From: Apteryx mantelli
Lineage: Eukaryota; Chordata; Aves; Apterygiformes; Apterygidae
Reading direction: 5' to 3'
Assembly (NCBI RefSeq): GCF_036417845.1
Contig: NC_090017.1
Location: 124,001-188,000, forward strand
DNA: 64,000 nt
Positions 3,701 through 6,700 of the stretch are shown in pieces. The translations under genes were made by a program, and so were the position numbers. The notes under the pieces were generated by a model that was given only the letters and a program-made list of their open reading frames with translations, had not been told where the DNA came from and searched no databases. Position 1 is the first letter of the stretch. Every line of letters begins with the position of its first letter.

Positions 3701-6700
3701 TCGGGCCGGGCGAACTTGGGGTCCATGCCGAGCACGAAGCACTCCTCGTCCGAGATGCGCTTGAAGATCTCGTGCACCCGCTCGGGGCTCAGCAGGATCT
3801 TCTTCTCCTGCGAGTCCTCGTTGACGTGCTTCCACTCGGCGTAGAGCTCCAGGCCCGAGCGCCGGATGCGCGGCTGGTAGCGCCCGCAGCCCCCGTGGCC
3901 CTGCGGCGACGTTAGCGGGGGACGTTAGCGGGGGACGTTAGCGGGGGACGTTAGCGGGGGGGACGTTAGCGGGGGACGTTAGCGGGGGACGTTAGCGGGG
4001 GACACCGGGGGTGGATGTGGGCGCTGGCAGCGCCCGCAGCCCCCCGTGGCCCTGCGGCGACGTTAATGGGGGACACGGGGGACGTTAGCGAGGGGACACG
4101 GGGGTGGATGTGGGGCTGGCAGCGCCTGCAGCCCCCATGGCCCTGCGGGGACATTAATGGGGGACGTTAGCGGGGAACACGGGGGGGGGGGATGTGGGGC
4201 TGGCAGCGCCCGCAGCCCCCCGTGGCCCTGCGCGGGGACATTAATGGGGGACGCGGGGGACATTAGCAGGGGACACGGGGGGGGATGTGGGGCTGGCAGC
4301 GCCGCAGCCCCCGTGGCCCTGCGGGGACGTTAATGGGGGACGCGGGGGACATTAGCAGGGAGGGACACGGGGGGAGGGATGTGGGGCTGGTAGCGCCCGC
4401 AGCCCCCGTGGCCCTGCGGCGACGTTAATGGGGGACGCGGGGGGAATAGTTAGCGGGGGGACACGGGGGGGGGGATGTGGGGCTGGTAGCGCCCGCAGCC
4501 CCCGTGGCCCTGCGGGGGACATTAATGGGGGACGTGGAGGGATGTTTAGCAGGGGACATGGGGGGTGGAGATGTGGGGCTGGTAAGCGCCCCGCAGCCCC
4601 CGTGGTCCTGCGGGGACATTAATGGGGGACGTGGGGGATGTTAGCAGGGGACATGGGGGGGTGGATGTGGGGCTGGCAGCGCCCGCAGCCGCCGTGGCCC
4701 TGCGGGGACATTAATGGGGCGCGCGGCGGGACGTCTAGCGGGGGACACGGGGGGGGGGATGTGGGGGCTGGTAGCGCCCGCAGACCCCCGTGGCCATGCA
4801 GGGACAGGGATGTCAGCGTGGGGGGACACAGGGGACATTAAAGGGGGACACAGGGGACAAGGACGTTAACGGGGGGGACATGGGGACATCAACCAGGGGG
4901 ACACGAGGGTGACAGAGCTGGCACTGCCTGCTCACCCCATGGCCCTTTGGGGAGACGGTGACATTAACAGGGTGACACAGGTGGTGACAAACAGGGCTGG
5001 CACTAGCCACACACCCCATGGCCCTGTAGGGACAAGGGGGCAGCAACAGGGGGGACACCAGGGCACTTAATGGGGGGACACGGGGGTGACAAACAGGGCT
5101 GTCGCTGCCACACACCCCACGGCACGCCGGGGACAGGGAGGGGACAAACACGGGGCCGTCACCACCCCACGGCCACACCAGGGATGAGAGCGCTAACAGG
5201 GGGAGGCGCAGGACACGTTAGCGGGGGAATCGGGGGGGCTGCCACCACCCGCCCCCCACGTTGGGGACCCCGAAGCCCCCCCCCCGGTCACCCACCTTCT
5301 CCTTGGCGAGGTCCTCGTCGCCCTCGGGGCTGCTCCACGCCGAACTTGTGGTCCATCTCCTCGCCGCCCTCGCAGATGTTCTTGCCCTTGCAGAGGTTCG
5401 TAGACATGCGTCAGCCGCTTCTTGGGCTGCCCCTTGGACTTGCCCAGGATGTCCTTGATTTTGGGGTTGTTCTGGGGGGGGGGGGGGAGAAAAACACCGC
5501 CGGTCACAGCGGGCTCCACTTCCGGAGGGTCCCCGTCCCTCCTCCGAGGACGTTTCGGCTCCATCGGGACGGCGACGGCACCGATAAAGCCCCACGGGAA
5601 GGAGCAACCCCTTCGGCCACCTCCTCCTCTTCCCCCCCACCAGCCCTTCAGCCCCCATCCCAAATGTTTTTTTGGGATGGATTCTGCCGCAACAGGCACC
5701 GAAAACAACCCCCCTCCTCTAAAACCCCCAGCCGAGAAGCTCACCGAGTCCACCAGGAGCTTGGAGCAGAAGAAGCAGACGCAGCGCAAGATCTTCATGG
5801 TTTTGCCCAAAAAGCCCACGTGGAAGACGGGTTTGGCCAGCTCGATGTGGCCGAAGTGGCCCGGGCACTCGGTCATGTTGCCTGCGGAGAGGACGGGAGC
5901 CCCGTCACCCCGCGGGGTCCTCGGGGGGGGGGGGGGGGGGGCGGCCGAGGTTTTGGGTGGGGAGAGCCCAAACCCCGCCGGTTTCGGTTGCGGGATCCTG
6001 CCCCGAAATGTCCCTGGGGGGGGGGTTCTAGATTGAGGTGAGATGTGGGCACGTGCGACAAAGCAGGTTGGGACGACCAGAAAACAGCTATTTTGACGTT
6101 TCTCATGATTTTTTGACTAAAATGTGACACCGAACGCGTCTCCAAAAAGTGAATGGCCTCCTAAAACGTCCCAGAAACACTCTAAAGTGAAAAGAAACGT
6201 TCTGAACCGGACAAGACAACGTGGGATGGGGACAATCAAGGAAAAATGGGTGGTTTGAGACATCTCCAGCTATTTTGGCCCAGGTGTTAACACCAAGGGT
6301 GTCCCCAAAGAGCAGATCAGTCCCCAAAAGCGTCCCGGAGCGGCTCTAAATCAAGGTGAGATGTTCCCACGTGGGATGAGGCAGGTTGGGATGGAAAACC
6401 GGGATGTTAAGGGAAAGAAACAGCTACTTCGGGGCATCTGCCGCTTCTCCAGCGGAAACGGGACGCCAAGGACATCCCTAAAGAGCAAATTCTCCCTCAA
6501 AACATCCTGGGGAGCTCTGAATTGAGGGAAGACATTCCCAGGTGGGACGAGTCAACTTGGGACAGGAAATCACAATGATTTGAGGAAAGAACTGGCCGTT
6601 TTGAGGCCTCTCTTGTTTTTCCAGCAGAAACAGGACACCGAGAACATCCCCAAAAAGCGAATTGTCCCCCAAAAAGGCCCTGGCACGTCTCCAAATCGAG

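What the first reader, a model, noticed from the sequence alone, without database searches (positions are those of the whole stretch)
3881..5140. A minisatellite has captured and multiplied a POLR2A splice acceptor and exon start
The first about 30 bases of POLR2A exon 3619-3900 (encoding the invariant [10 protein letters not shown]) and the CAG before it recur about 12 times in the upstream intron at 85-105 bp spacing. The copies differ from each other, so the array is old enough to have diverged while acceptor-like structure persists in most of them. An essential gene thus has a ladder of competing pseudo-acceptors right before an exon that carries a clamp zinc-ligand cysteine.
Basis: seen in the sequence. 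Interest (0 to 1): 0.82.

Follow-up and report, generated by a model that had tools for sequence, protein, structure and literature searches.

The report
Exon-start copies fill POLR2A intron 4
In what looks like a bird genome, the start of one exon of the RNA polymerase II gene, with its splice signal, has been copied about ten times into the intron before it; this fits the recently described 'exon stuttering' of tiny bird chromosomes.

Summary
POLR2A intron 4 (window 5295-3901, minus strand) holds nine clear copies (0-3 edits over 29 nt) of the start of exon 5, 85-98 bp apart, plus older relics. Eight of nine keep CAG|G. A second contig of the same assembly has the same copies in the same order. 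Exon 19 of the gene shows the mirror image: its last ~52 nt and splice donor recur in intron 19. This matches 'exon stuttering' of avian dot chromosomes (PMC12954441). With that paper's BLASTn threshold, 6 hits pass, all in adjacent introns, in 2 of 28 introns. The contig also carries an enolase gene, probably ENO3, which the paper places on a dot chromosome. So it is a new member of a known kind. Splicing into the copies is untested. The true acceptor scores no better than several copies, but seven CTAAC branch-point-like motifs precede it alone. Ten of ten upstream acceptors tested meet a stop before the exon. Preferred reading: a mostly neutral by-product of repeat growth, the true site being favoured by exon definition and branch-point density (inferred).

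The parts
3619..3900 (-). POLR2A exon 5 (RPB1 residues 180-273), source of the copies
   Evidence: phmmer to human RPB1 chains, E 2.6e-58 to 4e-58, residues 180-273; CAG|GGC acceptor and CAG|GTGGGC donor
5296..5471 (-). POLR2A exon 4, with donor AAG|GTGGGT at 5295
   Evidence: tblastn with recalled human RPB1, splice sites
3901..5295 (-). POLR2A intron 4, 1395 nt, 72% tandem repeat by TRF
3908..4003 (-). 13-bp array, GCTAACGTCCCCC on the coding strand, about 7 units, each with a CTAAC branch-point-like motif; directly before the true acceptor
   Evidence: TRF 13 bp x 7.2; 7 CTAAC in the last 100 nt before the exon in both contigs
4023..4051 (-). exon-start copy 9, CAG kept
4114..4142 (-). exon-start copy 8, CAG kept
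4198..4227 (-). exon-start copy 7, CAG kept
4291..4318 (-). exon-start copy 6, CAG kept
4385..4413 (-). exon-start copy 5, identical to exon over 29 nt, CAG kept
   Evidence: 58.0 bits
4481..4509 (-). exon-start copy 4, identical to exon over 29 nt, CAG kept
   Evidence: 58.0 bits
4577..4607 (-). exon-start copy 3, CAG kept
4671..4699 (-). exon-start copy 2, CAG kept
   Evidence: 42.1 bits
4766..4795 (-). exon-start copy 1, acceptor lost (CAT)
   Evidence: (44.1 bits)
4917..4944 (-). relic copy, AAG kept
   Evidence: 9 edits; not separable from chance by score alone
4999..5023 (-). relic copy, TACAG kept; best-scoring AG in the intron
   Evidence: 9 edits in C41, 8 in C230; acceptor score 11.1
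5097..5124 (-). probable relic copy, no AG
   Evidence: 10 edits; rests on order and flanks
5154..5174 (-). possible relic copy, no AG
   Evidence: 12 edits; weak

Best explanation
It is exon stuttering in a gene on a GC-rich, repeat-laden microchromosome. An 85-98 bp tandem unit straddling the intron 4/exon 5 border (intron tail, acceptor, first ~37 nt of exon) was duplicated into the intron and expanded. The copies are by-products of repeat growth; the exon itself is held by protein selection. The true acceptor probably stays in use because it alone is joined to the 282-nt exon body with its own donor, and because seven CTAAC motifs precede it; use of an upstream copy would give a stop-containing message. 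Shown: the array, the copies and one or more relics, the same array in a second contig, a second array at exon 19, the branch-motif array, the stops. Inferred: origin by slippage or non-allelic exchange, near-neutrality, and how the spliceosome chooses.
For: Nine copies with 0-3 edits in the adjacent intron; in the 94 kb examined all matches of 42.1 bits or more other than the exon itself lie in intron 4. Rerun of the published screen (plus strand only): 6 hits at or above 42.1 bits, 6 of 6 in adjacent introns, 5 of 6 at the exon border; 10 of 10 shuffles at 24.3 bits or less. Donor-side array at exon 19. Exon part 29-37 nt against a published median of 36. TRF covers 51% of C41:94001-188000. 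An enolase gene on the same contig; a BTB/zinc-finger ORF and EIF5A beside POLR2A. Intron 15 differs by 337 bp between the contigs in a 31-bp repeat. Ten of ten upstream AG acceptors tested run into an in-frame stop before the exon in each contig. CTAAC: 12 in intron 4, 1 in the other 27 introns together.
Against: Copy number at this array does not differ between the two contigs, and 1 of 27 comparable introns differs by more than 10%, whereas the paper found 183 of 192 exon-stuttering introns length-variable in chicken. Dot-chromosome position and bird origin are inferred. Two other genes of the contig showed no exon copies (4 EIF5A segments; 7 enolase segments). No transcript data: use of the copies is neither shown nor excluded, and several copies score like the true acceptor, so neutrality is not self-evident.
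Confidence: 0.85

Rival explanations
1. The ladder is functional: a fraction of transcripts splices into the copies, gives stop-containing messages that are degraded, and so tunes RPB1 dosage.
For: 8 of 9 strong copies keep CAG|G; these 8 score 2.8-8.2 and relic 5023 scores 11.1, against 7.3 for the true site; 10 of 10 tested extensions contain a stop in frame.
Against: In 8 copies of C230 the exon part and the intron part vary alike (4 of 29 against 8 of 38 variable columns, Fisher p 0.53), so there is no sign of constraint on either; stops are expected in a TAA-rich repeat; AGs may persist simply because the strong copies are recent (inferred).
Confidence: 0.08
2. The copies are kept alike by non-allelic gene conversion with the exon as a repeated donor, not only by slippage or unequal exchange among the copies.
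For: In the exon 19 array the contigs differ in runs: copy 1 is exon-like in C41 at 6 of 7 differing sites (six in a row), copy 2 is exon-like in C230 at 4 of 4 classed sites (a fifth, at intron position 205, was not classed).
Against: Differences are not significantly denser in the exon-like parts than outside (14 of 187 against 12 of 341, p 0.057). Independent decay in each haplotype could also give the pattern. In the exon 5 array the strong copies share two substitutions past +29 that the exon lacks, so they grew from each other.
Confidence: 0.3
3. Assembly artefact: a falsely expanded repeat.
For: The contigs differ by many indels (70 gap openings and 2 mismatches over 7515 bases), so the sequence has errors.
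Against: Two contigs agree on 9 copies, order and flanks; copies bear distinct substitutions shared between contigs.
Confidence: 0.03

Closest known systems
Exon stuttering / sequence stuttering of avian dot chromosomes (Hron et al. 2026, PMC12954441; seen: abstract, found passages, sections 7, 9, 16 and part 1 of section 8)
   Same: The lateral part of an exon with its splice donor or acceptor is tandemly copied through the adjacent intron; published exon part has median 36 nt; repeat-laden introns; GC-rich gene; exon intact
   Different: POLR2A is not named in that paper's main text (0 occurrences; the supplement with its list of 115 genes was not available). Here an acceptor side and a donor side are affected in one gene, a branch-point-like motif is multiplied too (the word 'branch' occurs 0 times there), and no copy-number difference was seen at this array between the two contigs
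IFI6 (6-16) minisatellite with multiple splice donor sites (1995 Nucleic Acids Res.; only its title seen, in the reference list of PMC2572611; paper not held)
   Same: A minisatellite that contains splice sites
   Different: Donors, not acceptors; that it is the IFI6 gene with a 12-bp unit is recalled; no bird dot-chromosome setting
Intron gain by tandem genomic duplication (e.g. PMC4974935; search listing with start of abstract only)
   Same: Tandem duplication carries splice signals
   Different: There a new intron forms; here copies of an exon edge pile up in an existing intron

Membership tests
Exon stuttering (Hron et al. [quoted passage not shown]
   9 strong copies in intron 4; 6 of 6 significant hits proximal
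Exon stuttering (Hron et al. 2026) | blastn-short hit of 20 or more bases at 42.1 bits or more, above shuffled control | tested here: met
   10 hits of 20 or more bases, 6 of them at 42.1 bits or more: 4 for exon 5 (42.1, 44.1, 58.0, 58.0) and 2 for exon 19 (46.1, 87.7); ten shuffles reach 24.3 at most; exons 1-28 as queries, plus strand only
Exon stuttering (Hron et al. 2026) | Source within 1 base of the exon border in most cases | tested here: met
   distance 0 in 5 of 6 hits, 9 in one
Exon stuttering (Hron et al. 2026) | Intron heavily covered by simple repeats | tested here: met
   intron 4 72%, intron 19 70% by TRF
Exon stuttering (Hron et al. 2026) | Strong preference for dot chromosomes | tested here: inconclusive
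   Same contig carries an enolase gene, ENO3 by elimination; the paper places ENO3 on chicken dot chromosome 35. Which chromosome the contig is in this species is not known
Exon stuttering (Hron et al. 2026) | Length variation of the stuttering intron within the species | tested here: inconclusive
   Intron 4 1395 against 1380 nt with equal copy number, intron 19 528 against 527; only two contigs of one assembly. Intron 15 varies, 761 against 424 nt
Exon stuttering (Hron et al. 2026) | Found in birds (the paper adds gerbils as an exception) | not testable with these tools
   Genome unnamed; bird inferred from gene content, GC and repeats
Minisatellite splice-site array used in splicing (IFI6 type) | Transcripts use the repeated splice sites | not testable with these tools
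   No RNA data

The most novel reading that the evidence does not exclude
The 13-bp CTAAC array that sits only before the true acceptor is a compensatory or regulatory branch-point ladder: as decoy acceptors multiplied, branch-point copies were gained next to the exon and keep splicing on target, and its length tunes RPB1 output through stop-containing decoy messages.
Probability: 0.08. Interest if true: 0.75.

Novelty: new member of a known kind. Interest (0 to 1): 0.42.

Why it matters
An essential gene carries eight near-identical decoy acceptors within 800 bases before an exon. If they are not used, it is a natural experiment on how the spliceosome picks one of many near-equal acceptors: similar local sequence, differing in branch-point density and distance to the exon body. 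It also offers exon stuttering a case with an acceptor-side array (8 of 9 acceptors intact) and a donor-side array (original donor positions damaged) in one gene, and a possible trace of exon-templated conversion between haplotypes.

Tried and rejected
A fuzzy regular-expression search for copies timed out with no output and was replaced by a small dynamic-programming script. The idea that the exon part of the copies is under extra constraint was tested and dropped: 4 of 29 against 8 of 38 variable columns, p 0.53, on 8 of the 9 strong copies of C230 (the most distal was left out, and C41 was not used because of its indels). The broader alignment gave a larger difference (4.7% against 17.7% substitutions), but unit lengths vary and misalign there. 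The idea that the array differs in copy number between the contigs was tested and not supported. The same screen in two other genes of the contig found no copies at 42.1 bits: EIF5A, 4 segments; enolase, 7 segments. A paper search joining POLR2A, chicken and minisatellite gave 0 papers; searches for minisatellites with acceptors or tandem decoys listed no paper whose title or abstract start described an acceptor array like this one; only the listings were seen. Trained splice models, orthologous bird introns and RNA were not available. The early edge control lacked four exon ends (24 of 28 donor edges tested; exon 26 reached 21 of 33, exon 19 reached 31, the rest 18 or less) and had exon 8's start one base off; one search mends both and covers exons 1-28 against all 28 introns. 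Exon 29's acceptor edge was tested only.

Full report
Observation. On the minus strand, POLR2A exon 5 (window 3900-3619) follows intron 4 (5295-3901). The exon's 94 residues match human RPB1 residues 180-273. The first 29 nt of the exon recur nine times in the intron with 0-3 edits, at 85-98 bp spacing; in 60 shuffles of the intron the best match had 8 edits. Four sites further up (9-12 edits in C41) look like older relics; only the one at 5023 (8 edits in contig C230) stands out from chance by score. So divergence is greatest far from the exon. A control over 28 acceptor edges found copies at exon 5 only.

Two contigs. The genome (1.504 Gb, 408 contigs) holds the exon twice: in C41, where the window lies, and in C230. 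The two agree at 97-99% from C41:103879 to C41:131488, that is from exon 2 to the last exons; exon 1 was not found in the part of C230 read. The 5' part has 2 mismatches and 70 gap openings over 7515 bases, which I read as sequencing indels. C230 is most likely the other haplotype or a duplicate contig (inferred). It carries the same nine copies in the same order. It is not an independent assembly.

A second array in the gene. The last ~52 nt of exon 19 with its donor recur in intron 19 (outside the window, C41:115195-114668) at about 100 bp spacing: copy 1 96% over 52 nt, copy 2 91% over 35 nt, and weaker further copies. At the original donor position copy 1 has AT in place of GT (score -0.5) and copy 2 scores -3.0, against 4.1 for the true donor; copy 3 has a GT at a shifted position scoring 4.0. 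Against a simple decay story, the true donor is itself weak: of 37 other GTs in the intron several score higher by the same matrix (two at 6.7, one at 5.5), and a GT four bases on in copy 1 scores 4.8, as does its counterpart beside the true donor. Between the contigs, copy 1 is exon-like in C41 at 6 of 7 differing sites and copy 2 is exon-like in C230 at 4 of 4 classed sites. That suggests exon-templated conversion, but the excess of differences in exon-like parts is not significant (14 of 187 against 12 of 341, p 0.057).

What it is. Hron et al. 2026 (PMC12954441; abstract, found passages, sections 7, 9, 16 and part 1 of section 8 seen) describe 'exon stuttering' on chicken dot chromosomes: the lateral part of an exon with its splice site is copied through the adjacent intron. 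Their screen found it in 190 of 5,572 dot-chromosome introns (3.4%), with exon parts of 20-187 bp (median 36) and 1-44 copies (median 4). I ran blastn-short with their length and bit-score limits, plus strand only, with POLR2A exons 1-28 against its 28 introns: 6 hits at or above 42.1 bits, all in adjacent introns, in 2 of 28 introns; ten shuffles gave at most 24.3 bits. The contig has an enolase gene. The other strong enolase loci are on C1 and C26, with one short weak match on C7; that the C41 gene is ENO3 is by elimination and recalled chicken positions of ENO1 and ENO2. The paper puts ENO3 on chicken dot chromosome 35. A BTB/zinc-finger ORF (ZBTB4 by recalled synteny) and EIF5A lie beside POLR2A (2 of the 10 ORFs scanned had a Pfam family). 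TRF covers 51% of the 94 kb examined and 49% of the window. Two features of the paper were not shown here: length variation of the stuttering introns themselves, and the species. Of 27 comparable introns only intron 15 differs by more than 10% between the contigs (761 against 424 nt, a 31-bp repeat); intron 1 could not be compared.

Splicing. With a matrix built from 26 acceptors of this gene (exon 5 left out), the true acceptor scores 7.3; the 26 used for building have a median of 12.4, which is inflated by their own part in the matrix. The eight CAG copies score 2.8-8.2 and the relic at 5023 scores 11.1; of 33 AGs in the intron the true one ranks third. So local strength does not single it out. 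What does is a 13-bp array directly upstream: seven CTAAC motifs in the last 100 nt in both contigs. In the -60 to -18 stretch the copies have 0 or 1 CTAAC and the true site 3. CTAAC occurs once in the other 27 introns together, 18,481 nt. That CTAAC is a good branch-point sequence is recalled knowledge. Use of any of the ten upstream acceptors tested (8 strong copies and 2 relics, of 32 upstream AGs) would add 151-1123 nt in C41 and bring an in-frame stop before the exon, 10 of 10 in each contig. Indel errors make exact frames uncertain, and stops follow from a TAA-rich repeat, so this is not evidence of design.

How it arose (inferred). The nine strong copies share two substitutions just past +29 that the exon lacks, so they grew from one founder and from each other. 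In C230, 5 of the 8 copies examined carry TGC where the exon has TAC, Tyr to Cys; a conversion from such a copy into the exon would change RPB1, and selection presumably removes it. The + strand of the intron has 6 non-overlapping G-quadruplex motifs, the coding strand 1, in line with the paper's speculation on DNA structure.

Verdict. Real, well formed, and a new member of a recently described kind. The unexplained and testable part is the choice of one acceptor among many near-equals.

Noticed in passing
L012:668-1401 (C41:114668-115401): Donor-side exon stuttering at POLR2A exon 19, with damaged original donors and a patchwork of exon-like tracts between the two contigs.
   Followed up: yes
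L012:3302-4062 (C41:117302-118062): POLR2A intron 15 is 761 nt in C41 and 424 nt in C230, in a 31-bp minisatellite: length difference between the contigs.
   Followed up: partly
window 6862-6998 and 5296-5471: Exons 2 and 4 carry apparent extra bases in C41; C230 lacks at least one of those of exon 4 but is 286 against 282 nt over exon 5. Likely sequencing errors, so reading frames in this assembly are unreliable here.
   Followed up: partly
window 3908-4003: 13-bp array with CTAAC motifs before the true acceptor; CTAAC is found only once in the other 27 introns.
   Followed up: yes
window 24964-28686 (+): Long ORF with BTB and C2H2 zinc-finger domains, probably ZBTB4 by recalled synteny.
   Followed up: no
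window 36075-38570 (+): EIF5A gene in four exon segments, no exon copies at 42.1 bits or more in the window.
   Followed up: partly
G000:C41:437124-440299: Enolase gene, ENO3 by elimination, on the same 641-kb contig; no copies of its 7 matched segments in the 18 kb read.
   Followed up: partly
C41 near 120957 (L012 about 6957): The acceptor of POLR2A exon 11 is preceded by a short TGTTGACGGGG repeat, again a repeat at an acceptor.
   Followed up: no
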